Origin: Kouleothrix aurantiaca
GTDB lineage: Bacteria; Chloroflexota; Chloroflexia; Chloroflexales; Roseiflexaceae
Reading direction: 5' to 3'
DNA length: 22,890 bases
Assembly: GCA_001399705.1 (NCBI GenBank)
Contig: LJCR01000006.1
Location: 1-22,890, forward strand
Under the pieces are notes generated by a model that did not search any database, was not told the DNA's origin, and was given only the letters and a program-made list of their open reading frames with translations. Shown piece after piece: positions 8,185-22,890 of this stretch. Numbering within the stretch: position 1 is the first letter of the stretch; every line of letters begins with the position of its first letter. Position numbers and translations under genes: made by a program.

Positions 8185-8937
8185 ATGCGCCCTATCACAC
8201 GCGCCGCGATCGCGGCGTTTGTCGCGCTGCACCTCTTTGCCGCCACCGCTCGCGCGGCCGCCGCGCCGGACTACCTGACAGGGTGTAGCGCACCCGTTCA
8301 CCCGGTCACCTGCTTCGTCGTCGAAGGCTTCGCGCACGAGAGCACCCAAAATCGAACAATGTGGGAGCTGATCAACGACGCGCAGACGCCGGCGACGGTC
8401 AGCTACTACCTGTACAACCCGACCACCGGCACCTCGGTGTACGAGCAGCCCGCTGCGGCGGTGGTTCAGCCAGGCGGGCACCTCGAGTACCCTGACATCC
8501 ACGACGTTCAGCGCACCGATTGGACGCCTGACTCGCTCATCGGCGTGTTCACGAGCGACATCACGATGACACTGCAAATCATCGGCCCGACCGTCCAGTG
8601 CCCGCGCGCCGCGGCCGGCAACATCACCTGCACCGAGGTTCACGCGGTCGCTGGCGCCGAGTTCTACAGTTTTTATAATCAGATGGAAAACCCGAACGCG
8701 GTCTGGATCCACACGCTCTACATCGGCGGCGTGGCCCAGGCGCCCTTCAGCGACGTCATGAGCGGGCCTGAGACCAAGCAGTACGCAACGGGTATGGGCC
8801 AGGAGCAGGGCGTGCAGATCGCCGCGGCGCCGCTGGCTTGGCAGGCCAGGACGACGCGCTACACCGGCGGGCCGCTGCCGCCGCGCTACCAGCCGCCGCT
8901 GAACAACAAGCTGTACCTGCCAATCGCCACCTGTTAG
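8185..8937 (+). CDS. Secreted hypothetical protein with signal peptide, 250 aa
   Basis: The N-terminus has the tripartite shape of a Sec signal peptide: MRPITR, then a hydrophobic stretch AAIAAFVALHLFAA, then ARAAAA as a likely signal peptidase I site near residue 26. The mature part is rich in Thr, Tyr, Pro and Gly, with several Cys that could form disulfides (near 32, 42, 138, 149 and the C-terminal Cys250). It ends in NNKLYLPIATC; a terminal LYLP-type motif is common on exported Chloroflexota proteins, from memory. It is probably an extracellular beta-rich protein. AAGGAG precedes the start. It closes the cluster, with a hairpin terminator 18 nt downstream. Confidence 0.75.
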   Translation: MRPITRAAIAAFVALHLFAATARAAAAPDYLTGCSAPVHPVTCFVVEGFAHESTQNRTMWELINDAQTPATVSYYLYNPTTGTSVYEQPAAAVVQPGGHLEYPDIHDVQRTDWTPDSLIGVFTSDITMTLQIIGPTVQCPRAAAGNITCTEVHAVAGAEFYSFYNQMENPNAVWIHTLYIGGVAQAPFSDVMSGPETKQYATGMGQEQGVQIAAAPLAWQARTTRYTGGPLPPRYQPPLNNKLYLPIATC

Positions 8938-8954
8938 TCGCATACCAAACCGTC

Positions 8955-8981
8955 AAAGCCGGCCCTTCGTGGGCCGGCTTT
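8955..8981 (+). terminator. Strong terminator hairpin after the secreted-protein gene
   Basis: AAAGCCGGCCC (8955-8965) pairs perfectly with GGGCCGGCTTT (8971-8981) around a 5-nt loop. The stem is GC-rich and ends in TTT, as expected for an intrinsic terminator. It is symmetric enough to act on both strands. It separates the 6967-8937 cluster from the next gene. Confidence 0.8.
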
Positions 8982-9005
8982 GCTATGCCGAAAAGGAGGC
9001 ACCCA

Positions 9006-9935
9006 ATGATCGTCGTTTCCGCATCGCAACGCACCGACATTCCGGCGTTTTACTCTAGGTGGTTCATGCAGCGCGTCAGAGCCGGCTTTGCCGAGGTCAA
9101 GAACCCCTACAGCGCGCAGGTCTACCGCGTCTCGCTGCTGCCCGAGGATGTTCACGCGATTGTTTTTTGGACCAAGAACTTCGCGCCGATGATCAAGCAC
9201 CTCGACGAGCTCGATGCGCGTGGCCTGGATTTCTACGTCCAGTACACCATCAACGGATTCACGCTCGACGAGCGCACCCGGCCGATGGAGGCGAGAGTGC
9301 CGCGCCCCGAGATCGTGCTGCGCGGCTTCCGCGCGATCACCGAGCGCTACAGTCGACAGCATGTCCTGTGGCGCTACCACCCGATCACGTTCAGCCAGGT
9401 CTGCACACCAGAGTGGCACCTCCAGAAGTTCGCCGAGCTGGCTGAGATGCTGGCCGGCCTGACGGAGCGCTGTGTGGTCGGCTTCCACGACAGCATGAAG
9501 AAAGTCGACCGCAACATGGGGCTGCTGCCGAGGGAGCTGCACGCCTACGAGCCGCCAGTCGAGACGCAGATCCAGGTCATCCGCGAGATGGCGCGGATCG
9601 CCGGCGGCGTCGGGATAACCCTGCAAACCTGCGCCGAGGATTTCGCCGCGCTCGGAGCGGTCGAGGGCGGTGGGTTGGTCGAAAGAGGTTCTTGCATCGA
9701 CAAGGGGCTGCTCGACCGCTTATGGCCGCACAAAGCGCAGGCGATGGCTGCCTACCCGAGCCGCGAGCAGTGCGGCTGCTACCACAACCGCGACCTTGGC
9801 CAATATGACACATGCCTCCACCAGTGTGCGTACTGCTACGCGGTCAACAGCCACCAGGTCGCGCTCCAGCGCTACAAATCACACGATCCGCTGAACGACA
9901 CGCGGAATGCTCCCTACAAGCCACCAGTTGAGTAG
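9006..9935 (+). CDS. DUF1848 family protein with C-terminal CxxxCxxC motif
   Basis: A 309-aa protein recognised as DUF1848 by its N-terminus (IVVSASQRTDIPAFYSRWFM), the IVFWTKNFAPM segment near 48-60 and its C-terminal cysteine cluster. That cluster is C256-x-C258 followed by C270-x3-C274-x2-C277, the last three having the spacing of a radical-SAM [4Fe-4S] site. The position is C-terminal rather than N-terminal, and the biochemical activity of DUF1848 is, to my knowledge, not established; comparison with spore-photoproduct-lyase-like enzymes is inference. The start at 9006 is supported by AGGAGG 6 nt upstream. It lies just after the terminator and probably has its own promoter. Confidence 0.85.
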   Translation: MIVVSASQRTDIPAFYSRWFMQRVRAGFAEVKNPYSAQVYRVSLLPEDVHAIVFWTKNFAPMIKHLDELDARGLDFYVQYTINGFTLDERTRPMEARVPRPEIVLRGFRAITERYSRQHVLWRYHPITFSQVCTPEWHLQKFAELAEMLAGLTERCVVGFHDSMKKVDRNMGLLPRELHAYEPPVETQIQVIREMARIAGGVGITLQTCAEDFAALGAVEGGGLVERGSCIDKGLLDRLWPHKAQAMAAYPSREQCGCYHNRDLGQYDTCLHQCAYCYAVNSHQVALQRYKSHDPLNDTRNAPYKPPVE

Positions 9936-10032: not shown

Positions 10033-10872
10033 CTACCGCTCGGGCGGCTCCTGGACGCGGCGCAGTTCCCCCAGCCTCCTCGCCTTCTTCGCCTTCTGTA
10101 GCGCGCGCTTCTCGCCATTTTTGTCGATCGAGTATCTGGTGCGCCGGGCCTTCCCGCTCGGGTCACGCCACGCGACCTCGAACACCGCATGACCACACAC
10201 GGTGCGGCGACTGATACCCAGCTCGCCGGTATTGCTGTTGGCATAGCCGATAACGGTGCGGTCGGTGCGCGGTTTGCCGATCCGCGCCTCGGTATGGTCG
10301 CGCCAGGCAACGGCCGCGTCAAGCGCGGCGAGGCGGTCGCCATATTTTAGGTCGCTGAAGAATGCCTGGTGACGCTCCTTCCGCCAGAACACGCGCACCA
10401 TATAGCCGTGCGTGGCGGTGATGCGCCGGCCATCCGGTTGGCGCCCCGCGTCGCGATCGATGCGGGTCACGCCCTTGTACTTGGTGGTCTTCATGCGCGC
10501 TGGCCCAGTGTTACGTCGCCGGCGGCGGGCTGGAATGGGCGGCTCAGCGACGATCGGCGGCTGATAGTCGATCTGCTGATCAAGGTCATAGCGCAATGCG
10601 CGTAGGTCGAGATCTGGTGGTGGAGCTTCACGGAACGGTGGTGCGTCGCCGAGCACCAAGCCATCAGTCGGCGGCTGCACGAGCCGTGCTTCAGGCAACC
10701 ACAGGACATAGCCGCTGGCGATGCGCGCGCCGTTGGAGAGGGTCAATGGCTGTGATTCCCATTGCACATAGGCCTCCGCAATGTCTTGGGCCTGCGCATC
10801 GAGATCGCCACGCGTAAACGACGCACGTAGACCCACAAATACCCGCCCGCTCCGCCGTCTGACTGTCTTCAT
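10033..10872 (-). CDS. AP2-like DNA-binding protein, 279 aa
   Basis: Residues about 127-195 fit an AP2/ERF-type domain: TKYKGVTRIDR, then YMVRVFWRKERHQAFFSDL, then a helix LAALDAAVAWRDHTEARIG. This is the three-strand-plus-helix pattern found in plant AP2 factors and in bacterial or phage HNH/homing proteins. A second, more diverged unit follows (about 205-265, with ISRR, HAVFEVAWRDPSGKARRTRYS and a basic helix). The N-terminal 120 residues are Pro/Arg-rich and carry no nuclease motif I can see. A GGAGG site lies on the minus strand just upstream of the ATG. It is probably a sequence-specific DNA-binding protein of mobile-element origin; the target is unknown. Confidence 0.75.
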   Translation of the reverse strand: MKTVRRRSGRVFVGLRASFTRGDLDAQAQDIAEAYVQWESQPLTLSNGARIASGYVLWLPEARLVQPPTDGLVLGDAPPFREAPPPDLDLRALRYDLDQQIDYQPPIVAEPPIPARRRRRNTGPARMKTTKYKGVTRIDRDAGRQPDGRRITATHGYMVRVFWRKERHQAFFSDLKYGDRLAALDAAVAWRDHTEARIGKPRTDRTVIGYANSNTGELGISRRTVCGHAVFEVAWRDPSGKARRTRYSIDKNGEKRALQKAKKARRLGELRRVQEPPER

Positions 10873-12104: not shown

Positions 12105-14069
12105 ATGGGAAAACCCTACGCTTCCGAGTTAGCGGCCCTTAAGGCGACGTACGAGCAATTAATGACTGCGCCTATTGACCTGTTGGCACAGGCCCTAGCG
12201 GCCTGTGCATCCATGCCCCTTATCGTTGTTGGATCGGGAGGATCGCTAACAGCAGCCCATTTTACAACATGGCTTCATCAGCGTTACACGGGTAATATTG
12301 CTAAGGCTGTCACCCCTCTCGAGTTTGTGTCCGCATCACTGTCCTTGTCGGAGATCGGTATACTATTTGTAAGTGCTAGTGGACGAAACCCAGATATTAT
12401 CGGGGCATTCAAGCATGCTGTAAAGCATGGGCCAAAGCACATTATCATCATTTGTTCCGATGCTGATAGTCCGCTCGCGCATCTGGCAAAAGGGTATCAA
12501 TGGATTAATTGCATCACGTTCGAACTCCCTGTCAAGAAAGATGGTTTCCTCGCTACCAATTCCTTACTAGCGACAATGATGTATCTTTGCCGCGGATATG
12601 TAGCTACTTTGATAACAGCCGAAGAGTTACCGGCAACGTATGCAAACCTCATCTCTTTATTCAATCCACAGGGGCAAATCGATGACTATCTACGCGAGCA
12701 ATGCCGTCTGTTGTGGGAAAGAGACACGCTGATTGTGTTGTATAGCACGACAACGCAGATGGCAGCATTCGATCTCGAATCGAAATGTACCGAAGCTGCG
12801 CTTGGCCATGTGCAAATCGCTGATTATCGTAACTTCGCCCATGGGCGTCATCATTGGTTAGCCAAACGAGGGTTTTCCACAGGTGTAATTGCCTTTGTGA
12901 CAGACGACGATCGTGAGCTTGCTCAGCGTACTCTTCGCCTATTACCTTCTGATATTGTTGTGATCCATGTTAATATTCAAAGTGGCGGTATCCGTGCCAG
13001 CTTCGCGGCGCTCATTGCCGCATTGTATATCGTAGGGTTAGCTGGCGAGGCTTGCGGGATCGACCCTGGACGCCCAGGAGTGCCGCCATTCGGGCGGAAA
13101 ATCTATCACTTACGTGCGCTGGAAACAATACCGAAAAACGATCATCAAGTTGACCCTCCTGCTATTAGAGCGATCGAACGCAAAACACATACGACACTAG
13201 ATATCTTGCATGCGCGTGGCGAATTGGCTTTCTGGAAGGCAGCCTATGCTACCTTTACACGATCACTATGCCAAGCCTCATTCAGAGCCATTGTGTTAGA
13301 CTATGATGGTACACTCTGCGATCAAACTAAGCGAACTGCGGGTTTGCAGAACCCAGTGACTGAGCACCTTCACCGTCTTTTACAGGCAGGTATCGCCATT
13401 AGTATTGCAACTGGTCGTGGCAGGTCGGTCAGACAGGAACTGTGCAAGGCGATTCCTGAACATTGGTGGTCACGCATCTTAGTGGGCTACTATAACGGAG
13501 CTGACATTGGTTTCCTCAGCGATGAAAATCATCCGAATGGGACAGACTTGCCTTGTGAAGCACTTCGACCGATTGCAATGGAACTCCAATCACACACACG
13601 TTTACAATCGTTAGCGACATGCACGTGCCGCCCAATGCAACTCACGGTTGAACTGACGCCACCGGCATCTTTCGACATTGTATGGGGTATTGTACAGAAT
13701 ATCGTACATTTAACCGTAGCCACTGGTGTCACGATGGTTCGTTCCAGCCATTCCATTGATGTGCTTGCTCCGACCATTTCAAAACGGGCAGTCGTGGATA
13801 GGACTGCAGCCGTGACAGGAATTGATCCTGAGCAAATATTGTGCATTGGTGATTGCGGGCGATGGCCAGGGAACGATTTTGCCCTTCTTGCGGCCCCGCT
13901 CGCTTTGAGTGCTGATGAAGTATCAACTGATTCTGCGACAGGCTGGAACCTTGCGCCCGTTGGTTATCGCGGTATACAGGCTACCCTTGCGTATCTCCAA
14001 GCACTCGAGACTCAAGGATCCTTTTTGCGTTGGAATGCGCAAGCGATGGAGCGTGAGGTAACTTTATGA
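12105..14069 (+). CDS. SIS-domain (sugar isomerase) / HAD phosphatase fusion, 654 aa
   Basis: The N-terminal 350 residues form a double SIS (phosphosugar-binding) module of the GlmS/AgaS type: GSGGS at 43-47, VSASGRNPD near 89-97, and a second SIS lobe around 205-345. The C-terminal part is a HAD phosphohydrolase with all four motifs: D399-Y-D401-G-T (nucleophile and acid), T436 in SIATGRGRS, K560, and G-D583 followed by G-N590-D591. The large segment between motifs I and III suggests a type-II cap, as in Cof/phosphomannomutase-like HADs. The fusion suggests sequential isomerisation and dephosphorylation, or removal, of a phosphosugar; the substrate is unknown. It is the first gene of the operon and overlaps the next by 4 nt. 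Base composition is lower in GC than the flanking regions, consistent with transfer. Confidence 0.85.
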   Translation: MGKPYASELAALKATYEQLMTAPIDLLAQALAACASMPLIVVGSGGSLTAAHFTTWLHQRYTGNIAKAVTPLEFVSASLSLSEIGILFVSASGRNPDIIGAFKHAVKHGPKHIIIICSDADSPLAHLAKGYQWINCITFELPVKKDGFLATNSLLATMMYLCRGYVATLITAEELPATYANLISLFNPQGQIDDYLREQCRLLWERDTLIVLYSTTTQMAAFDLESKCTEAALGHVQIADYRNFAHGRHHWLAKRGFSTGVIAFVTDDDRELAQRTLRLLPSDIVVIHVNIQSGGIRASFAALIAALYIVGLAGEACGIDPGRPGVPPFGRKIYHLRALETIPKNDHQVDPPAIRAIERKTHTTLDILHARGELAFWKAAYATFTRSLCQASFRAIVLDYDGTLCDQTKRTAGLQNPVTEHLHRLLQAGIAISIATGRGRSVRQELCKAIPEHWWSRILVGYYNGADIGFLSDENHPNGTDLPCEALRPIAMELQSHTRLQSLATCTCRPMQLTVELTPPASFDIVWGIVQNIVHLTVATGVTMVRSSHSIDVLAPTISKRAVVDRTAAVTGIDPEQILCIGDCGRWPGNDFALLAAPLALSADEVSTDSATGWNLAPVGYRGIQATLAYLQALETQGSFLRWNAQAMEREVTL

Positions 14070-15169
14070 GACAGGAACTGGCACTCCGCATCCTAAGTGA
14101 AGTAATGCACTGGGATACATCGAAATCACGAGAGGAGTTTACTTGGCTACGTCTAATGTCGCGCCTCAAGTATAACCGTTACCAGGACTTTCTCGCTGGT
14201 GCACGTTTCATAGAGAGTCTGGTAGATTGGTTGCAGCAATTTGAACATGCCGATCGGGCGACGGCATACGAGTTTGTTCGGAACCATCTAGTTTACGTGA
14301 GTCATGCTGAAATGCAGCACCTCGTTGAACTCGCATATTCTGAAACCATCCGACCCTATCTTACAACTGCGGTTGCAACACGCCTGAATATTCCGACGTA
14401 TCGCGTTTGGTCCCAGCTAGATGCTCGACAGCTGTACACGAGGCTGCTACGTCAAACGCTGTTTCTGGCGCTTAGTGATGGAGCTCGCATAGATATCTTC
14501 CGCCGCTCAAATGTTGGTGCTATTAGTAATGAGCAAGTGCTGGTAACACCACAACCTAACAGTGCAAAATGGAATGGTTTGCTGCGCGATCTGCGAACCG
14601 ATTTGAATGATCCTTCAGCGCGATTTGCCTTCGTATTTCTCATCGACGATTTCGTAGGCAGCGGGACGACCCTTTTACGGTTGGATGATAATACCTGGGA
14701 AGGCAAATTGGTTACCTTCTTGAGAAATATCGAAGAGATAGCACAGACCCATTTAGAGCCACAGTGGAAGCTCGGCGTTCATCACTACATTGCAACACAC
14801 AAGGCATGCGAGAACTTGGATGAGCGCGAAGCCAAGGCCCGCCGATCCCCCGATGCCAAACAGTGGTTTCATGAAACTACATTTTCTTATGGCATGATTC
14901 TTCCAGCTGATCTACCTATCGATGAGCGGCGATATCAAGATCTCATGCGCCTTATTACTGTCTATTATGATTCCAGTATCGCAACCCGCCATTTTGAGAA
15001 GGGTGGAAGTGATGATGCTCGGCTCGGATTTGGCCACTGTGCGCTTCCCTTAGTGTTGGATCATAATACGCCTAACAATTCAATCGCCTTACTTTGGGCC
15101 GAGTCTGAAGATCCCAACTGCGCTCATGCAATGCGACCGCTGTTTCGCCGTAGGCAACGACATCTTTAA
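14066..15169 (+). CDS. Phosphoribosyltransferase-like protein, 367 aa
   Basis: The clearest motif is FLIDDFVGSGTTLL, with D194-D195 and the G198-S-G-T-T202 loop. This matches the PRPP-binding signature of type I phosphoribosyltransferases (hydrophobic strand, two acidic residues, then a G/T-rich loop). Around it, FAFV... gives the preceding core strand. The roughly 170 N-terminal residues are helical and unlike biosynthetic PRTases, and the protein is nearly twice the usual 180-210 aa. It resembles, from memory, the PRTase-CE group described in computational surveys of prokaryotic conflict systems; I could not search to confirm. It would transfer phosphoribose to, or remove it from, a base or nucleotide. 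Translation is coupled by the ATGA overlap with the SIS-HAD gene. Confidence 0.7.
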   Translation: MRQELALRILSEVMHWDTSKSREEFTWLRLMSRLKYNRYQDFLAGARFIESLVDWLQQFEHADRATAYEFVRNHLVYVSHAEMQHLVELAYSETIRPYLTTAVATRLNIPTYRVWSQLDARQLYTRLLRQTLFLALSDGARIDIFRRSNVGAISNEQVLVTPQPNSAKWNGLLRDLRTDLNDPSARFAFVFLIDDFVGSGTTLLRLDDNTWEGKLVTFLRNIEEIAQTHLEPQWKLGVHHYIATHKACENLDEREAKARRSPDAKQWFHETTFSYGMILPADLPIDERRYQDLMRLITVYYDSSIATRHFEKGGSDDARLGFGHCALPLVLDHNTPNNSIALLWAESEDPNCAHAMRPLFRRRQRHL

Positions 15170-15177
15170 GGTGGAAA

Positions 15178-17106
15178 ATGGACAACCCTTTCATGAAACG
15201 CGCGACAGAATTCCTGCGCGATGAAGAAGCGTTCCTTGCACTGGTAAGTCCCGAGCCTGTCCGCTATTTCTTACATCAACCAGGTGCATCTGGCGTGCTC
15301 TATGATCGGCTTGTTCTTATCCAAGGTACGCCTGGTAGTGGCAAGACTACTCTCGCACGACTCTTCACCTATCCTGCCGTTGCAACCCTACTCCGTAACA
15401 GTAGCATGAGTACCTACCAGCCTCTTGTCCATGCCTTACGTGAGTGCGGAGGACTCACCGATAGAAATCCTAGTGTCGTTGGCTGTCGCCTACCACTTGA
15501 GACAGATTACCGCGACTTTTGGGAGTTCCCATACTCTGATGAACTCAAAATGGGGCTGATGATGGCCCTTGTTCAGGCGCGCGCAGTACTGGGGTGGTTC
15601 CGTAATCTTATGCAGGCAGGCGTAGATTTGTCTCGGGTTTCAATCGTGCCGCGTGCTGATGCTGATGCAGCGACAGCAGCAATAGGTGGCGTTATTGCTT
15701 CAGATATCATGGAACGTGCCCGCTCAGTCGAAAGATCCATCTACGATATTATTGGTGCACTTGTAGCCCCCGAGCTTTCTCAGCTTCCAATAGCTGCAAC
15801 GAGCGCATACCGTCCTTTCGATGTCATAGATCATATTCATATCGTGAATGTCAATCCCGATACTCCATCGATACTTTCCTTACGCCCACTTGTGATGTTG
15901 GATGATGCCCACACACTCCATCCAGCACAATTTCGTGGTTTAATCCGCTGGCTGACACGGCGTGAGTTGCGCGTTGCGCGATGGGTTCTTACACGCTTTG
16001 ATGTATTTCATCCACGTGAGTCATTAACCACGATCTCCGATGAACAAGCCACAGCGATCGAGCTTCCTGGCATCACAGCAACCCGCGATACGGTCGATAT
16101 TCGTCTACAGAGCGGCGTAACAGATCGCACAGAGCAACGTCAGGCGTTCCGGCGAATGGCGAAGGATATGTCAGGCCGTTATCTGCGTCAGATGTCACTC
16201 TTTAGTAGTCGCAATCTCTCGCAGCTTACAGATCTTCTAAGTACGGAGTCTGAACCGCTCGCACCTACGAAACTACATTATCTAGAGGCGAGTATTAGCA
16301 ACCTGCAACATCAGCTACATATCACCGATTCACGCTGCGCTACTCTATTAGCGACCGTGGATGCGTATCGCTTTGGCAAACAGCAGATACCTGATGATGT
16401 TCGCCTCGCCATGTTAGCCATTTTATTGCACCGCTATGCAAAACGCACCGCGCAACGTCATATGTTTGAAGAAGACCCCGATCCTGCTAAGCCGATTGAG
16501 GCCGACTCAACTGTATACAATGCCGCGCGCTTGCATTTGTTACACCAGCACGATCGCCCGTATTATGTTGGAATAGATGCGGTCTGCGATGCTAGCTCTG
16601 AAAATGCAGAACAATTCTTGCGTCTTGCTGCCATCCTTGTCGCTGAAGCATCTACCCAACTGATTCGTGGGCGATCCCCATCGCTTAATGCACGCACACA
16701 GAATTTGCTCCTGCGCCAACGCGCAGGTGAAATTCTTGATGTTTGGGACTTTCCACAATGCAAGCTTGTTCGGCACTTGGTCGGGGGTATCGCAACACAG
16801 TGCCTGTCGACGTCCCTCGAACCCAACGCTTGGCTAGGCTCGGGCGCGAATGCCTATGGTATTCGACAGTTGGAATTTGATGAGCTCCCAGAGAAATATC
16901 CGCAGCTTGCTCAAGTATTACATTATGCGATTGCTTACAATGCGGTGACGCTAATTCCTCACTATCAGTGTAAAGATCAAGAGTGGTGTCTACTCGAATT
17001 GGGGGGTATGGTAATCCTCCACCATGGTTTAACGCTGTTCCGCGGTGGGTTCTTAGAAGGAACTGCCAAAGAACTCTTGCGAATGTTGCAAGGGGAGACG
17101 CAATGA
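15178..17106 (+). CDS. P-loop ATPase, ORC/CDC6-like AAA type, 642 aa
   Basis: Walker A is G50-TPGSGKTT58 and Walker B is LVMLDDAH with D242/D243, followed by a helix and WLTRRELRVARWVLTRFDVF, a plausible sensor-1 region. The roughly 190-residue insertion between Walker A and B is long and mostly helical. The C-terminal 300 residues are helical with no enzymatic motif I recognise. The general pattern resembles the ORC-CDC6-like ATPase group reported next to PRTase-like proteins in predicted conflict systems (memory, not searched). It may sense or remodel a nucleic-acid or protein trigger and gate the enzymes. It starts 8 nt after the previous stop with AAGGTGG upstream, and overlaps the next gene by 4 nt. 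Confidence 0.75.
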   Translation: MDNPFMKRATEFLRDEEAFLALVSPEPVRYFLHQPGASGVLYDRLVLIQGTPGSGKTTLARLFTYPAVATLLRNSSMSTYQPLVHALRECGGLTDRNPSVVGCRLPLETDYRDFWEFPYSDELKMGLMMALVQARAVLGWFRNLMQAGVDLSRVSIVPRADADAATAAIGGVIASDIMERARSVERSIYDIIGALVAPELSQLPIAATSAYRPFDVIDHIHIVNVNPDTPSILSLRPLVMLDDAHTLHPAQFRGLIRWLTRRELRVARWVLTRFDVFHPRESLTTISDEQATAIELPGITATRDTVDIRLQSGVTDRTEQRQAFRRMAKDMSGRYLRQMSLFSSRNLSQLTDLLSTESEPLAPTKLHYLEASISNLQHQLHITDSRCATLLATVDAYRFGKQQIPDDVRLAMLAILLHRYAKRTAQRHMFEEDPDPAKPIEADSTVYNAARLHLLHQHDRPYYVGIDAVCDASSENAEQFLRLAAILVAEASTQLIRGRSPSLNARTQNLLLRQRAGEILDVWDFPQCKLVRHLVGGIATQCLSTSLEPNAWLGSGANAYGIRQLEFDELPEKYPQLAQVLHYAIAYNAVTLIPHYQCKDQEWCLLELGGMVILHHGLTLFRGGFLEGTAKELLRMLQGETQ

Positions 17107-18188
17107 AAACGCGAAGGTGGGAATATTGTGTGTATCAGCGTGGGAGCGAAATTCCTACCTTTGTCGACGATTATTTTGCCGCCAAAGATCGGCGCGTTTT
17201 GGTCATAGCCGGTTTAGGTTTTGATTGGCGCTCCATAAATATCAGCGCTACAATTGCATCACCACTTGGGGAGCGTGTGCAAGGACTTCTCCTTCAGGAA
17301 GAGCGGCCAAATCCTGATCCTCGGCTTGTCGAACGCGTATCCCTATGCCTCCATCAGATGCAGAGCTTGATCCCTGTCTGCGATGTTCAGACAATAGAGA
17401 TCTTCGCTCCTGACGGTGCCGTTGTGAGTGGACGAAATGCTGTTCGCGTGATTCGACAAACCTCACTTGACAGCTTCACAGATATCGTAATCGATGCTAG
17501 CGCGTTGTCGATAGGTATTCTATTTCCACTAGTGCGCTATGTGCTCCACAAAGCTGAAAGCAGCATCTCCCCATTGCATGTACACCTGATGTTTACCTCG
17601 GTACCAGCCTATGATGATGCGATCACTGCTACTGCGAGCGATATCGTCGGAACAATTCATGGCTTTAAAGGTGGGTTAAACCTGGATCAGAATTATGATG
17701 CAGCGCGACTTTGGCTTCCTCAATTAGTGAAGGGGCAGCGAGCCGTACTGGATCGCCTTCATACCTATGTTAATCCACACGATGTTTGCCCTATTTTGCC
17801 ATTCCCAGCACACCATCCTCGTATGGCCGATCGTCTAATCGAATATTATCAGCAAGAGTTTGAGAGTACATGGGAGGTTGATGATAGCGCGATTGTATAT
17901 GCTGCTGAGCACAACCCTCTTGATCTCTACCGAACCGTTTTACGAATTGATGAAACGCGCAAGCGGATATTTGAGGTCATGGGTAATTCCTTAATTGTAC
18001 TCTCACCGATAGGGAGCAAAACCCTTGCCCTCGGTGCGATGATGGCTGCTATTGAGCGAGATCTACCAGTTACTTATGTCGAAACTGTAGCTTACATGGC
18101 TGATTGGTCCGCTCTCCCCCAACAGCCTACTAGCGAAGGCGAGATTATACATCTGTGGCTCTATGATGGTGAGCATGATCATAGCTGA
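17103..18188 (+). CDS. Uncharacterised Rossmann-like protein, 361 aa
   Basis: I do not recognise a family. Hydrophobic strand/turn patterns suggest alternating alpha/beta folds: RRVLVIAGLGFDWRSINI (about 30-47), FTDIVIDASALSIGILFPLV near 125-145, LHVHLMFTSVPAY near 160-172, and NSLIVLSPIGSKTLALGAMM near 297-316. The last block, with a Gly-Ser-Lys turn after a strand and a following helix, is reminiscent of nucleotide-binding CARF/SAVED-type sensors, but that is speculation. No metal-binding or nuclease motif is seen. The start at 17103 is chosen for its ATGA overlap with the ATPase gene; an earlier in-frame start would lie 120 nt inside that gene. Confidence 0.75.
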   Translation: MKTRRWEYCVYQRGSEIPTFVDDYFAAKDRRVLVIAGLGFDWRSINISATIASPLGERVQGLLLQEERPNPDPRLVERVSLCLHQMQSLIPVCDVQTIEIFAPDGAVVSGRNAVRVIRQTSLDSFTDIVIDASALSIGILFPLVRYVLHKAESSISPLHVHLMFTSVPAYDDAITATASDIVGTIHGFKGGLNLDQNYDAARLWLPQLVKGQRAVLDRLHTYVNPHDVCPILPFPAHHPRMADRLIEYYQQEFESTWEVDDSAIVYAAEHNPLDLYRTVLRIDETRKRIFEVMGNSLIVLSPIGSKTLALGAMMAAIERDLPVTYVETVAYMADWSALPQQPTSEGEIIHLWLYDGEHDHS

Positions 18189-18202
18189 ATTACAAAGGCA
18201 TC

Positions 18203-19306
18203 ATGTATATGAATGGAACGATCTTCGATGTCGCCAAGCTGCGGCCATCGATCATTGGCACTGGATTGATTGCACTTGATGTTGTTATCAACGAAGATGT
18301 AAGGGCATCACCGCGTCTCTGGGCTGGCGGGACGTGCGGTAACGTTCTTACAATCTTAAGCTACCTAAATTGGCAATCTTTTCCGATTGCTCGCTTTGGT
18401 GAGGATAAAGCCGCGCAACTAGTGCGTCATGATCTTCAAAAGTGGGGTGTGTGTCTCGATTGGTCCTCTCTTGAGCCAAAAGGAGAGACACCTATTTTCC
18501 TGCACTACATACAGAAGAATGCATTTGGGAATCCCGTTCATCGCTTCGTACGAGTTTGTCCACAATGCGGAACAACGTATCCGGGCTATAAACCAGTGCA
18601 TGCTACTGTAGCTGCAGACATAGCAACTCACCTTATGGTTCCCCAGGTGTTCTTTCTCGATCGGCTCTCTCGCGGCGCACTAACCCTTGCGCAATCTTGT
18701 GCTAATCAAGGGGCCATTATTGTATTTGAGCCTTCAGGTATTAAGGAGGAAAATCTGTTCAATGAAGCAATGGCGCTAGCCCATATCGTCAAATATTCTC
18801 AAGAACGACTCGTCAACATAGATGCTTTCAATCGTTCATCAGGACCACTCTTGGAGATCCGAACTATGGGTGGTGCCGGTCTAGCGTATCGTAGTCGGAT
18901 AGAGAAATGCTCCACTAATGGTTGGCAACATATCGATGCATATCCAGCCATGATGCTTCGTGATTCGGCAGGGGCTGGTGATTGGTGTACTGCAGGCATT
19001 ATCCACACAGTGGGACGAGGCGGTATTGCTGAGTTCTGCTTGATGACACCAGAGAAATTGTATGAGGCGTTGTGTTTCGGTCAGGCACTGGCTGCATGGA
19101 ATTGTGGCTTTGAAGGCGCCCGAGGCGGAATGTACGAGGTGTCCAAAGAAGTACTTCAGTTGGAGATAAAATCGATTCTCGATCGACACCTAGAACCCAG
19201 GCTCGCAAGTATTGAAAGACTATTAGAAACAACTGATGGGGAACCCGATAGTGATGTGCTCCAAGAGATTTGTCTGACGTGTCGGTGTAGCCGTGATGAA
19301 ATGTGA
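18203..19306 (+). CDS. PfkB-family carbohydrate/nucleoside kinase with extra cysteines, 367 aa
   Basis: The second PfkB signature is present as DSAGAGDWCTAG (254-265), with catalytic base D260 and the GAGD anion hole. The N-terminal G-x-G-x-x-A-x-D pattern (IIGTGLIALDVVINED, about 17-32) and AGGTCGNVL (about 42-50) are also typical of ribokinase-like enzymes. The protein would phosphorylate a sugar or nucleoside using ATP. Unusual additions are a CPQC pair (C119, C122) within the lid region and a C-terminal C357-x2-C360-x-C362 tail; together they could bind a metal, which is inference. It is last in the operon, 14 nt after the previous gene. It may supply or consume the phosphosugar handled by the SIS-HAD and PRTase-like proteins. 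Confidence 0.85.
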   Translation: MYMNGTIFDVAKLRPSIIGTGLIALDVVINEDVRASPRLWAGGTCGNVLTILSYLNWQSFPIARFGEDKAAQLVRHDLQKWGVCLDWSSLEPKGETPIFLHYIQKNAFGNPVHRFVRVCPQCGTTYPGYKPVHATVAADIATHLMVPQVFFLDRLSRGALTLAQSCANQGAIIVFEPSGIKEENLFNEAMALAHIVKYSQERLVNIDAFNRSSGPLLEIRTMGGAGLAYRSRIEKCSTNGWQHIDAYPAMMLRDSAGAGDWCTAGIIHTVGRGGIAEFCLMTPEKLYEALCFGQALAAWNCGFEGARGGMYEVSKEVLQLEIKSILDRHLEPRLASIERLLETTDGEPDSDVLQEICLTCRCSRDEM

Positions 19307-19406: not shown

Positions 19407-20414
19407 TCATATCTTCGCCCGCTCCATTGCTTTGCGCATATCATCGTCGCTTGGCGTGAGATATATGCCGGTGGTGGCGATACTACTATGGCCCAGCGTT
19501 CGCTGCACTACCGCCAAATCGGCACCCGACTCAAGTAGACGGCGCGCGAGACTGTGGCGCAGGGTATGCGGCGTGGTGTGTTCCAGGCGCTGCGCCAAAT
19601 CGACCATTACGCCGACCCGCTCTAGTGAAGATACCAGTTGCGCGTCTAAACGGAAACGCGCGGCGGCCTCGTGTGCACGCTCCTCGACGACCCGTTGGAC
19701 CAGTCGTTGGTTAACGCCGGGATGTATTGGCCGACCAGCTGTGGTCGAAGCAAATCCGACGATCAGCGGCTCGCGCTCGGCATCACTGCCAATCAGGGGG
19801 ATGCCGTGCGGGCAGCGCAGGCGAGTCAGATAACGGCGGAGCAGATGGATCGCCTCGGCGCTCAGCATCACGCGGCGCATGCGGCCGCCTTTGCCGTGGC
19901 GGATCGTCACGTTGGCACCTGCGAGATCGAGATCGCGGAGCTGGACATCGCAGACTTCCTGCGCCCGCAGCCCAGCGTAGATCAGGAGCGCCAGCAGCGC
20001 TTCGTCGCGCAGGCGGATGCGCTCATCTTGTTCGCTGCGCACCGCCCGCAGGATGGCATCCACAGCTTCCGTGGGAATCGACTTGGGCGTTGGCTGGCTG
20101 GTTGGGATCGCCTTTATCTCCTCGGCGGGATTTTCCGTGATCAGCCCAGCGTCCGTCGCCCACGCGCAGTAGGCGCGGAGAGTCACCAGCGCGCGGTTGA
20201 TCGTGGTCGGCGCGGCGGCATCGTCCTTCTGGCGGGCCAGCCGCCACGTGTGCAGGTCGCCTTCACGTAGCAGCGCGGGATCGAATGGGCGACCACGCCA
20301 ACCCTCCCACCAGGTCACGAAGCCGGTGAGATCGCCCCGTGCCGCCTTAACGGTGAGCGGCGAGCGCCCCTTCTCGGCGAGGTATGTGAGGTAGTGGCTG
20401 ATTGACGCGTGCAT
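19407..20414 (-). CDS. Tyrosine recombinase / integrase, 335 aa
   Basis: A complete XerC/D-like site-specific recombinase. The N-terminal SAM-like core-binding domain covers about 1-100 (SHYLTYLAEKGRSPLTVKAA). The catalytic domain has R150 (AGLRAQEV), K175 (GKGGRMRR), H283-x-x-R286 (HTLRH), H309 (LGHS) and nucleophile Y318 (GIYLTP), so all active-site residues are present. An unusual insertion of about 25 residues lies around 250-278. GGAAG sits a few bases before the ATG. It converges on the five-gene operon with about 100 bp between, so it may be the recombinase that moved this island; inverted repeats lie directly upstream. Confidence 0.92.
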   Translation of the reverse strand: MHASISHYLTYLAEKGRSPLTVKAARGDLTGFVTWWEGWRGRPFDPALLREGDLHTWRLARQKDDAAAPTTINRALVTLRAYCAWATDAGLITENPAEEIKAIPTSQPTPKSIPTEAVDAILRAVRSEQDERIRLRDEALLALLIYAGLRAQEVCDVQLRDLDLAGANVTIRHGKGGRMRRVMLSAEAIHLLRRYLTRLRCPHGIPLIGSDAEREPLIVGFASTTAGRPIHPGVNQRLVQRVVEERAHEAAARFRLDAQLVSSLERVGVMVDLAQRLEHTTPHTLRHSLARRLLESGADLAVVQRTLGHSSIATTGIYLTPSDDDMRKAMERAKI

Positions 20415-20574: not shown

Positions 20575-20671
20575 CTGAATAGTAATCAACTTTCATGAAG
20601 TCATAAAGGGTTGAAGAGGTTTCCATATCGGTTTCGTTGGGATATCAATTGGTGGTAATAGATACGACGCA

Positions 20672-20722
20672 CGTTTCCCCACCATCCGTTCGGCCGCGTG
20701 CCTGGCGGATGGTAGGGAAACG
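20672..20722. repeat. 17-bp inverted repeat, 17-nt spacer
   Basis: CGTTTCCCCACCATCCG (20672-20688) and 20706-20722 are inverted repeats matching at 16 of 17 positions. They flank a 17-nt GC-rich centre. A neighbouring 7-bp inverted repeat (ATCGGGA at 20730-20736, TCCCGAT at 20744-20750) follows. Possible explanations are a recombination site, an operator pair or a remnant of an inserted element. Confidence 0.65.
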
Positions 20723-21388: not shown

Positions 21389-22890
21389 TCACACTCTAAA
21401 GATATCCACTTTCGTCTCTAGACACTTTCGCAGCGACAGGTCGTTCGCGCCAATCTCGAACCAGCTCGTCGGCTTCTGGTAGAAATCGAGGCCACGACCA
21501 ATCTTGAGCACCCAGCCGTTATCGATGCGGATCTCCCGGTCGTGCATGGTGGCGCTAAATTCAAGATCTAGCACGATATCCTGCTCGAGCAGGCTCTGCT
21601 GCAGGTCGCTCAGCTTGTTCTGAGCGTCAGCGCGTTGGCTTTCATCGTCGTAGCTGGTGATCAGCTTGATGCGCCGGATGGTCGAGCTTGTCAGCACGAC
21701 CTCGCAAAAGCGGACGAAGTTCTGGATCTGGTGGGGCATGCGGATATATGGGTCTTCGACAACCACCTTCTGGGCACCGCGTAGGTATGCGGCCATAATC
21801 GACTCGTAGCTGTGGCCGGTGTCGCCGTAGAAGATCGTGTAGTGCTGCTCTTTGAGCTCCGGTTCGCGTGTAGCCGGGCGCACCGGCTCGCTTGAGTCGA
21901 GTGGCGTAACAACGGGTGCTGGTGCCGGCTGCTGGGCCTTGCTCGCGGTCTTCTTCACGTCAGCTGTTGCCCCCAGTACATGTCGGGTCGGCTGCTGGGT
22001 GGCCGCGGCACCACGCGATTCTGGACAGTACACGATGACCTCGCGGCCGTCAGTGGCAACGTACGACAGATCAATCTTCGCAAACTCGTCGTCGGGCTTG
22101 CGCTTGTTCATCTGCTCCTTGATCCGCCGCCGACATTCGACCGCGTAGGTCACGTACTCCTCGAATTCGGCATCACTCGGTGGTCCATCAGGATGCAGAA
22201 TCTTCAGAAACGCTGCGATCGTCTTCTTAATGCCTTTTTCGTCGCGCCCCTCCACCGCCGCGCCGAGCCGCACGCGCTTGGTGACTTCCTCGTAGCGGTT
22301 GCTGTGCGCGAACTGGTAATGGAAGGCCTCAGCCAGGTAGTCGGTGATAAAGCCGTAGCTGTTCGTCAGGAACTCGCTGCTGTTCTTCGGCATCTCCCAG
22401 CCGGGCAGATAACACGCGAATCGGTCAAGAATCGCCAGATCAAACTCCTTGGCCAACGGTAGAAACAAATCATGCTCGGCTGAGTTGACGATCTGTTCGA
22501 CGGATTGGTCGATATTGCCAACAAAGGCCAGGCTGGCGTCAGCGATCACCTCCACCCCGCGCGAGAAGCGCCCATTGGCCATGAAGTCTTTCATGATCTG
22601 CATGGTGTCGGGATCGTTGATTCTAATACCGCCGACCTCGTCGAACGCGACGGTGTCCCAATAGCCGACCAAACCGATCCGCTTGCGCGCGTTGTTATAG
22701 AAGAGGGTGGCCTTGGTCGCCTGCCCGCCGCTGACCAGCGTGGCATAGGGTGAGAATTCGCTGAAGAAGTACGACTTGCCGGTGCCACGCGGCCCAAGCT
22801 CGATCAAGTTGAAGTTTGGCTCGACCAGCGGAGCCAGTCGCGCGATGAAGTGCAGTTTTTGCCGCGCGGAAAGCTTGGACGGCTCCAATC
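21389..22890 (-). CDS. brxL: BrxL-like ATPase with MIT_C-like C-terminus (5' end outside window)
   Basis: About 500 residues are visible. The first in-frame start in view is a TTG at 22888, very likely internal: BrxL normally has a further N-terminal region, and the frame is open to the edge. The core has Walker A G-PRGTGKS (residues 32-39 as numbered here), Walker B VAFDEVGG (D83, E84) and the YNNARKRIGLVGYWD and FVGNI segments characteristic of BREX BrxL. A Lon-type protease domain is not evident. After a Pro/Ala-rich linker (about 295-350), residues about 358-495 resemble the MIT_C (phospholipase-D-like) domain: HYTIFYGDTGHSYESIM, VEDPYIR, LEFSATMHDREIRIDNGWV. That domain combination suggests a variant BREX or related defence role. 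No other BREX genes are in view. Confidence 0.8.
   Translation of the reverse strand, partial: LEPSKLSARQKLHFIARLAPLVEPNFNLIELGPRGTGKSYFFSEFSPYATLVSGGQATKATLFYNNARKRIGLVGYWDTVAFDEVGGIRINDPDTMQIMKDFMANGRFSRGVEVIADASLAFVGNIDQSVEQIVNSAEHDLFLPLAKEFDLAILDRFACYLPGWEMPKNSSEFLTNSYGFITDYLAEAFHYQFAHSNRYEEVTKRVRLGAAVEGRDEKGIKKTIAAFLKILHPDGPPSDAEFEEYVTYAVECRRRIKEQMNKRKPDDEFAKIDLSYVATDGREVIVYCPESRGAAATQQPTRHVLGATADVKKTASKAQQPAPAPVVTPLDSSEPVRPATREPELKEQHYTIFYGDTGHSYESIMAAYLRGAQKVVVEDPYIRMPHQIQNFVRFCEVVLTSSTIRRIKLITSYDDESQRADAQNKLSDLQQSLLEQDIVLDLEFSATMHDREIRIDNGWVLKIGRGLDFYQKPTSWFEIGANDLSLRKCLETKVDIFRV

What the first reader, a model, noticed from the sequence alone, without database searches (positions are those of the whole stretch)
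12105..19306. Uncharacterised five-gene operon: SIS-HAD, PRTase-like, AAA ATPase, unknown Rossmann-like protein, PfkB kinase
Seen: five genes, all on one strand, with 4-nt overlaps or gaps of 8-14 nt, lower GC than both flanks, next to a tyrosine recombinase and a BrxL-like gene. Known: SIS, HAD, PRTase and PfkB families all act on phosphorylated sugars or nucleotides, and I recall PRTase-CE and ORC-CDC6-like ATPases being listed together in surveys of conflict systems. Inferred: an ATPase-gated pathway that makes, modifies or destroys a nucleotide-sugar molecule in response to phage or other DNA. The set resembles a complete biochemical cycle (kinase, transferase, isomerase, phosphatase), which is unusual for a defence locus.
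Basis: partly seen in the sequence, partly recalled or inferred. Interest (0 to 1): 0.93.

Follow-up and report, generated by a model that had tools for sequence, protein, structure and literature searches.

The report
Mobile five-gene CARF–PRTase conflict operon
A tightly conserved, horizontally spreading set of five bacterial genes joins a ribose-transfer enzyme of a family that retron immune systems use as effector to a CRISPR-type signal sensor, a DNA-motor-like ATPase and sugar-phosphate enzymes, which suggests an uncharacterised immune system with unusual chemistry.

Summary
In detail: five same-strand genes, 4-nt overlaps or 8/14-nt gaps, 49% GC against 60-63% in the flanks. The "unknown Rossmann-like" gene is a CARF protein (PADLOC CARF6, E=4e-105; its AlphaFold model aligns to CARF structures in the top 24 rows). 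Gene 2 is PRTase-CE, the retron type III effector family; gene 3 is an ORC/Cdc6-like AAA+ ATPase.

The set is real and mobile. All five genes occur in 63 of 64 CARF6 loci with enough flank (nine named phyla, four gene orders), on plasmids and among restriction, DISARM and conjugation genes. Anchored on the SIS-HAD fusion instead, 6 of 6 carriers have PRTase, ATPase and CARF adjacent. Catalytic residues are conserved. Cas10 was found in 7 of 51 carrier genomes, the window's own included.

Two facts bear on mechanism. Of 18 sampled Pseudomonadota PRTase-CE genes, 9 sit beside a reverse transcriptase and one beside only an ORC-CDC6-like ATPase. NADAR, an N-ribosyl glycosidase family, directly adjoins 20 loci of this system and PRTase-CE in two other operon types.

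Best reading: a PRTase effector in a PRTase–ATPase–CARF core, with SIS-HAD and PfkB handling its sugar-phosphate ligand or product. No activity is shown.

The parts
12105..14069 (+). Gene 1: SIS-HAD fusion, 654 aa. Tandem-SIS aldose/ketose isomerase-or-deaminase part (about 1-360) and Cof-type HAD phosphatase part (about 390-654)
   Evidence: Pfam SIS 2.8e-6, Hydrolase_3 4e-10; nearest solved SIS structures 8eol/3hba (glucosamine-6-phosphate deaminase / putative phosphosugar isomerase), E 3e-5 to 2e-6; E230, H246, D399, D401, K560, D583, D591 identical in 29 of 29 aligned members
14066..15169 (+). Gene 2: PRTase-CE phosphoribosyltransferase, 367 aa, PRPP loop around 194-202, invariant C-terminal HNxPNN...RxxRH
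   Evidence: PF24390 3.5e-19; PADLOC PRTase_III-A (retron) 2.8e-16; D195 and G200 36 of 36, D194 34 of 36
15178..17106 (+). Gene 3: ORC/Cdc6-like AAA+ ATPase, 642 aa, with Walker A and B; C-terminal part with a winged-helix-like order of elements (not tested alone)
17103..18188 (+). Gene 4: CARF6 protein, 361 aa, no fused effector domain seen; model shows two Rossmann-like CARF lobes (about 30-190 with the last strand, and 191-329)
18203..19306 (+). Gene 5: PfkB-family kinase, 367 aa, with a CPxCG-type knuckle insert
   Evidence: PF00294 1.7e-9; nearest solved structures fructokinase 5ey7 5e-20, putative sugar kinase 1tyy 6.5e-18, ketohexokinase 2hlz 1.7e-15; D254, G257, G259, D260 34 of 34
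19407..20414 (-). Tyrosine recombinase next to the operon (perhaps the mobility gene of the island)
   Evidence: Phage_integrase 9.3e-29; XerC 7.1e-50, below NCBIfam's cut-off
21389..22888 (-). BrxL (Lon-like, BREX), cut by the contig end; neighbour, not part of the system
   Evidence: PADLOC BrxL 3.4e-192

Best explanation
A mobile conflict (probably anti-phage or anti-plasmid) system. Its effector is the PRTase-CE enzyme, which would use PRPP to put phosphoribose on a base or other amine of a cell molecule, or burn PRPP/nucleobases, to stop growth. PRTase, AAA+ ATPase and CARF form the fixed core: the ORC/Cdc6-like ATPase is the invader- or DNA-state switch, and the CARF protein binds a nucleotide-type ligand and sets the switch. 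SIS-HAD and PfkB make, remove or recycle the sugar-phosphate ligand or product (kinase, then C-N/aldose-ketose chemistry, then phosphatase). Where present, NADAR removes an N-ribosyl adduct. Shown: gene identity, conserved catalytic residues, co-occurrence, mobility, defence surroundings, PRTase-CE beside reverse transcriptases, NADAR adjacency. Inferred: every activity, the trigger, the ligand, and which protein switches which.
For: All five families in 63 of 64 roomy loci. Gene orders differ but PRTase-ATPase-CARF stay contiguous on one strand in 86 of 88 loci where all three were found (both exceptions have a split ATPase), while SIS-HAD and PfkB move; PRTase and ATPase share one open frame in L041. 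Of 18 Pseudomonadota-phylum PRTase-CE genes, 9 have a reverse transcriptase next door (YADD in all nine; Pfam RVT_1 checked for 3, the other 6 by BLASTP to these) and 1 (L143) has an ORC-CDC6-like ATPase without the other three families in the 14 kb held, so it can occur without the sugar enzymes. Flanks of 15 loci: 214 PADLOC families matched among 126 proteins against 60 among 132 control proteins from the same 15 genomes. 17 plasmid records. CARF fold. NADAR at most 421 bp from the genes in 20 loci; the same profile found none farther off in the loci held and none in 16 control regions.
Against: No phage test exists. All catalytic inferences rest on sequence. The CARF protein has no recognised effector domain and its ligand is unknown. 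SIS-HAD and PfkB are nearly always present, which an effector-only view does not explain; they could equally be the core and the PRTase a biosynthetic step. NADAR is absent from most loci (present in 13 of 67 with room) and from the window. The PADLOC counts are of families, several of which match one protein, and the control regions also held a type I-D Cas10 and CBASS-type matches. The window's own genome has a Cas10, so a CRISPR-made ligand is possible here.
Confidence: 0.55

Rival explanations
1. Signal-synthesis pathway (Ter-like): PfkB, SIS-HAD and PRTase together build a nucleoside/nucleotide-like second messenger that the CARF protein senses; the ATPase is the trigger or the responder.
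For: Enzymes with intact active sites and a ligand-binding-type CARF protein together in 63 of 64 loci; the Ter system is described as PRTases plus HAD phosphoesterases that make a signal which other proteins might sense (PMC7824862, passages).
Against: PRTase-CE occurs beside reverse transcriptases and beside a lone ATPase, without the other enzymes; SIS-HAD and PfkB order is loose while PRTase stays with ATPase and CARF; in two loci no PfkB was found in the 14-15 kb held.
Confidence: 0.22
2. Ancillary module of type III CRISPR: the CARF protein senses cyclic oligoadenylate made by Cas10 and switches the ATPase-PRTase effector.
For: CARF fold closest to Csm6, Can2, Card1, Cam1, Cad1; the window's own genome holds a 738-aa Cas10-like protein with a GGDD motif on another contig.
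Against: By the Cmr2/Csm1 models Cas10 is seen in 7 of 51 carrier genomes (4 of them over a curated cut-off), not in 44, among them the complete Terriglobus roseus DSM 18391 (G033). Drafts can miss genes.
Confidence: 0.08
3. Ordinary mobile catabolic operon for an unusual sugar, amino sugar or glycated compound (PfkB kinase plus SIS deglycase/deaminase, as in the FraD-FraB pathway), with PRTase and ATPase as passengers or regulators.
For: PfkB is nearest to fructokinases, SIS to NagB-II; a kinase-deglycase pair of this logic is known (PMC9609667, passages).
Against: PRTase-ATPase-CARF are the fixed core; flanks rich in restriction, DISARM and conjugation genes, controls mostly housekeeping in the families shown; PRTase-CE is otherwise often beside reverse transcriptases; none of the five window genes is a transporter or a recognised regulator.
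Confidence: 0.06
4. DNA- or RNA-modifying system: the enzymes make and attach a modified base or sugar to host nucleic acid, marking self, without toxicity.
For: NADAR also sits in a PRTase-CE/NADAR/DUF1156 methylase-like operon; the ORC/MuB-like ATPase suggests DNA.
Against: No nuclease or methylase among the five; retron copies of the PRTase are described as effectors (PMC12548924, passages).
Confidence: 0.09

Closest known systems
Retron type III-A PRTase effector
   Same: Gene 2 is the same family (PADLOC PRTase_III-A, Pfam PRTase-CE); 9 of 18 sampled Pseudomonadota family members sit beside a reverse transcriptase
   Different: No RT among the window proteins scanned; ATPase, CARF, SIS-HAD and PfkB instead
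PRTase-CE + ORC-CDC6-like ATPase pair (Pfam PF24390/PF24389; example L143)
   Same: The same two Pfam families adjacent as an apparent two-gene unit
   Different: Lacks CARF, SIS-HAD and PfkB in the stretch held; sequence is distant
CARF proteins of type III CRISPR (Csm6, Can2, Card1, Cad1, ring nucleases)
   Different: No fused nuclease or deaminase recognised, and no Cas10 found in 44 of 51 carrier genomes
DprA-PRTase and ShosTA/RqlHI-type PRTase systems
   Same: A PRTase proposed as effector or toxin, gated by a DNA-sensing partner; the DprA-PRTase pair protects against T7 and lambda (PMC9122126, passages)
   Different: Partner is DprA, not ATPase plus CARF; whether that PRTase is PRTase-CE was not tested
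Ter system
   Same: PRTase and HAD enzymes with ligand-binding partners in a conflict setting (PMC7824862 passages)
   Different: No Ter proteins; HAD fused to SIS, plus PfkB, CARF, AAA+
DarT-NADAR toxin-antitoxin
   Same: NADAR beside an enzyme able to attach a ribose group (PMC11125620 abstract and passages)
   Different: Writer would be a PRTase using PRPP, not an ADP-ribosyltransferase using NAD; NADAR optional and absent in the window
FraD-FraB (FrlD-FrlB) deglycation pair
   Same: Kinase then deglycase on a sugar-amine phosphate (PMC9609667 passages); the SIS part here keeps a Glu-His pair 16 residues apart as in GlmS/FraB (family numbers recalled)
   Different: Fused to HAD; context is conflict genes; substrate unknown

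Membership tests
CARF superfamily | CARF (Rossmann-like) fold shared with Csm6/Can2/Card1 | tested here: met
CARF superfamily | Binding of cyclic oligonucleotide | not testable with these tools
   -
Type III CRISPR ancillary module | Cas10 in the same genome | tested here: inconclusive
   Met in the window's own draft genome (other contig) but in only 7 of 51 carriers; drafts can miss genes
Type III CRISPR ancillary module | cas genes beside the operon | tested here: not met
   No cas match among the 9 window proteins scanned with PADLOC other than CARF6 itself
Retron type III | PRTase effector of the III-A family | tested here: met
   PADLOC PRTase_III-A 2.8e-16
Retron type III | Reverse transcriptase beside the PRTase | tested here: not met
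   No RT among the 18 window proteins scanned with Pfam
PRTase superfamily (catalytic) | PRPP-binding loop with two acidic residues and Gly | tested here: met
   D195, G200 36 of 36; D194 34 of 36 (Glu in 2)
ORC/Cdc6-like AAA+ ATPase | Walker A/B and ORC/Cdc6-type fold | tested here: met
DarT-NADAR type TA | NADAR antidote beside the writer | tested here: not met
   No NADAR match in the window; beside 20 other loci
FraB/GlmS-type SIS enzyme | Catalytic Glu and His 16 residues apart | tested here: met
   E230 and H246 29 of 29; family residue numbers recalled
BREX | PglZ, BrxC, methylase and BrxL together | tested here: inconclusive
   Only BrxL is seen, at the contig end
Anti-phage defence system | Protection against phage | not testable with these tools
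   -

The most novel reading that the evidence does not exclude
An immune system built on reversible N-phosphoribosylation: on activation the PRTase writes phosphoribose from PRPP onto bases or amines (DNA, RNA or nucleotides); NADAR erases the N-glycoside; and PfkB plus SIS-HAD, a kinase-deglycase-phosphatase set of the fructosamine-repair type, erase the rearranged (Amadori) form, while CARF and the ORC-like ATPase gate the writer. This would be a new class of immune chemistry beside ADP-ribosylation.
Probability: 0.15. Interest if true: 0.95.

Novelty: new variant of a known kind. Interest (0 to 1): 0.78.

Why it matters
It is a widely spread (CARF6 rows from 11 named phyla in the tree), sharply delimited operon. 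PADLOC recognises two of its five proteins as families. It ties three lines that are studied apart, retron PRTase effectors, CARF signalling outside CRISPR, and NADAR glycosidases, and so gives a direct way to ask what PRTase-CE effectors do; the mode of action of retron PRTase effectors was called unknown in 2022 (PMC9122126, passages). If the sugar enzymes act on the ligand or adduct, it would reveal a new signalling or toxic small molecule.

Tried and rejected
Prior art: the two papers most likely to have touched these families (the CARF classification in NAR 2020, doi 10.1093/nar/gkaa635, and a conflict-system survey in J Bacteriol 2020) are not held, so novelty is stated with that gap; that they may mention such operons is recall, not a result. 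Listings for the combination showed no title or abstract about it, and 'PRTase-CE' gave 0 papers. The DefensePredictor paper (PMC13092281, passages only) names PRTase in the legend of its validated systems and mentions NADAR domains among its proteins; its supplement could not be seen, so one of its systems could be a relative.

PADLOC 'PRTase_III-A' was first taken for CRISPR III-A; the retron paper (passages) and the RT neighbours corrected this.

CARF6 against PDB sequences: nothing at E<=1; Foldseek alone ranked cation-chloride cotransporter domains first with low TM-scores and was not used for the claim. ATPase by Foldseek: no match at E<=0.001. PRTase against PDB: best 0.04; the L143 PRTase alone nothing useful. 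No match of CARF6 in 50,697 phage records; 2 loci in viral contigs. No Rfam match in the window. Direct repeats around the island: best pair 19 nt at 84% (10818, 20664), which looks like chance; no attachment site claimed. First Cas10 test with the palm domain alone (19 of 50 at E<=1e-3, 13 over cut-off) mixed in partial GGDEF-like matches, and a cut at 1e-10 would have missed the window genome's Cas10, so the Cmr2/Csm1 models were used. There the union at E<=1e-3 is 9 of 51; G010 and G013 (single short Csm1 matches near 1e-3) were not counted; 4 (G001, G021, G025, G032) are over a curated cut-off.

Limits of the counts. Loci were drawn with a CARF alignment (80 best of 132 in genome contigs, plus 2 viral); 82 went into, of which 64 had room (5.6 kb before and 1.5 kb after CARF). 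The exception, L072, has SIS-HAD and PfkB, no PRTase or ATPase match and a truncated CARF. Of the 18 without room 5 had all five, 13 did not. Nine phyla: counted by me from the tree labels of the roomy loci; the tree's 11 include Actinomycetota and Zixiibacteriota rows from loci without room. In some searches at most 4 candidates a genome were scored. 6 of 17 plasmid hits were read. Flank test: greedy ORF calls, 126 of 161 flank and 132 of 144 control ORFs scanned (size cap; one flank ORF, L076:6184-6774, was lost in copying the list); the tool counts families, shows 25, and several models can match one protein. NADAR: 19 plus L075, which that script missed because of an extra PRTase fragment; the NADAR profile came from three seeds. 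RT identity: Pfam for 3 of 9, BLASTP for the other 6; no retron RNA was looked for there.
Full report
What is there. The window is one whole contig (22,890 bases) of a 7.8-Mb draft genome in 3,843 contigs, 83.5% complete and 7.5% contaminated. Five same-strand genes fill 12105-19306, each starting with ATG, overlapping by 4 nt (genes 1/2 and 3/4) or spaced by 8 and 14 nt. Their GC is 0.494 against 0.628 and 0.599 on the two sides. A tyrosine recombinase and a BrxL gene cut by the contig end follow on the other strand.

Do the five belong together? Of 17 plasmid records with the CARF gene six were read: five show the same five genes in the same order, the sixth (Paenarthrobacter) has them as PRTase-ATPase-CARF-SIS-HAD-PfkB. 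A scan of one genome per species gave 132 relatives; the best 80 loci and 2 viral-contig loci were typed with profile HMMs made from the window and those plasmid copies. Of 64 loci with enough flank, 63 hold all five; the exception, L072, keeps SIS-HAD, PfkB and a truncated CARF. Orders: SIS-HAD first and PfkB last in most, PfkB-SIS-HAD-PRTase-ATPase-CARF, PRTase-ATPase-CARF-SIS-HAD-PfkB, two divergent blocks in L078, and SIS-HAD-PfkB-PRTase-ATPase-CARF in L131. PRTase-ATPase-CARF are contiguous on one strand in 86 of 88 loci where all three were found, and in both others the ATPase is split. In L041 PRTase and ATPase share one open frame. G001 also holds SIS-HAD and CARF fragments on other contigs, one CARF piece with stops. 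No PfkB was found in the 14-15 kb held of L132 and L153, both of which have NADAR next to SIS-HAD; L138 ends after CARF.

Spread. The CARF tree has rows from 11 named phyla, very close copies in different families or orders (Stappia and Aquamicrobium; Ruegeria and a Kiloniellaceae MAG), and an Entotheonella copy inside a proteobacterial group (metagenome bins can be contaminated). The system is rare: PRTase-CE is over cut-off in 6 of 400 genomes of the window's phylum, two of them (G000, G139) with this system and none of them among the 8 other genomes of the window's family that were drawn. Of the 17 plasmid records 8 are typed conjugative. Flanking proteins of 15 loci match 214 PADLOC families at E<=1e-10 (among those shown DISARM, type I and IIG restriction, PrrC) and Pfam conjugation and methylase families; control stretches 200 kb off in the same genomes match 60 PADLOC families (among those shown a type I-D Cas10 and CBASS cyclase and phospholipase) and, in the list shown, mostly housekeeping Pfam families.

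Ligand source. If the CARF protein answered Cas10's cyclic oligoadenylate, carriers should have Cas10. Cmr2/Csm1 models find it in 7 of 51 carriers, one being the window's own genome, where a 738-aa protein with GGDD lies on another contig. So Cas10 does not seem to be needed in general, but in this host it could feed the sensor.

The PRTase elsewhere. In 398 genomes of the phylum of G008 (Shinella, Pseudomonadota) 18 have PRTase-CE at E<=1e-8. Contexts: a reverse transcriptase next door in 9, this system in 5 (one without PfkB), PRTase-CE/NADAR/DUF1156 in 2, PRTase-CE with an ORC-CDC6-like ATPase in 1, other in 1. In the window's phylum G315 has an AAA ATPase, PRTase-CE and NADAR in a row.

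NADAR. A profile from three seeds finds NADAR directly beside 20 loci of this system, at most 421 bp away, in several positions and both orientations; it finds none farther off in the loci held and none in 16 control regions. The states need at least 6 changes on the CARF tree. Among loci with 1.5 kb of room on both sides it is 13 of 67. [quoted passage not shown] PMC9503650 passages). The recurrence with PRTase-CE in three operon types suggests shared N-ribosyl chemistry; this is inference.

How it most likely works. The fixed PRTase-ATPase-CARF core is read as effector, switch and sensor; SIS-HAD and PfkB as enzymes for the ligand or for undoing the product. A kinase followed by a deglycase is a known pair for sugar-amine adducts (FraD/FraB, PMC9609667 passages; that these are PfkB and SIS proteins is recalled), which gives the bolder reading of a reversible phosphoribosylation system. 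None of the activities has been tested.

Novelty. The parts are known families. I saw no description of the set as a unit, or of its link with NADAR, in the listings, but two key papers and one supplement could not be read. I therefore call it a new variant of PRTase-effector conflict systems, with a real chance that it is more.

Noticed in passing
L140:6330-11364 and the matching part of L141: PRTase-CE, NADAR and a DUF1156 methylase-like protein in a row: an apparently different PRTase/NADAR operon, perhaps tied to BREX-related systems (L140 proteins checked with Pfam; L141 by its likeness)
   Followed up: partly
L134:4670-9550: AAA ATPase (892 aa), PRTase-CE and NADAR in a row, with none of the CARF, SIS-HAD or PfkB profiles matching in 15 kb
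   Followed up: partly
L143:6331-9080: Apparent two-gene unit: PRTase-CE plus ORC-CDC6-like ATPase
   Followed up: partly
window 18203-19306: The PfkB kinases carry a CPxCG-like knuckle insert (C119 in 32 of 34, C122 in 28 of 34 rows) and often a second CPxC near the C-terminus, a possible zinc site
   Followed up: no
G000:C2380 (L156): The window's genome encodes a Cas10-like protein with GGDD, followed by a gene that looks RAMP-like by eye, on another contig
   Followed up: partly
window 8838-9935 and 3333-5933: DUF1848 protein and a PAS/GAF hybrid histidine kinase upstream of the island
   Followed up: no
window 10818-10836 and 20664-20682: 19-nt direct repeat at 84% identity around the low-GC island; probably chance, but it brackets operon and recombinase
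   Followed up: no
L041:6928-9987: PRTase and ATPase encoded by a single open frame
   Followed up: no
L088 and L089 (IMG/VR contigs): Two contigs classed as viral carry the operon (L089 from the PRTase gene on, at a contig end)
   Followed up: no
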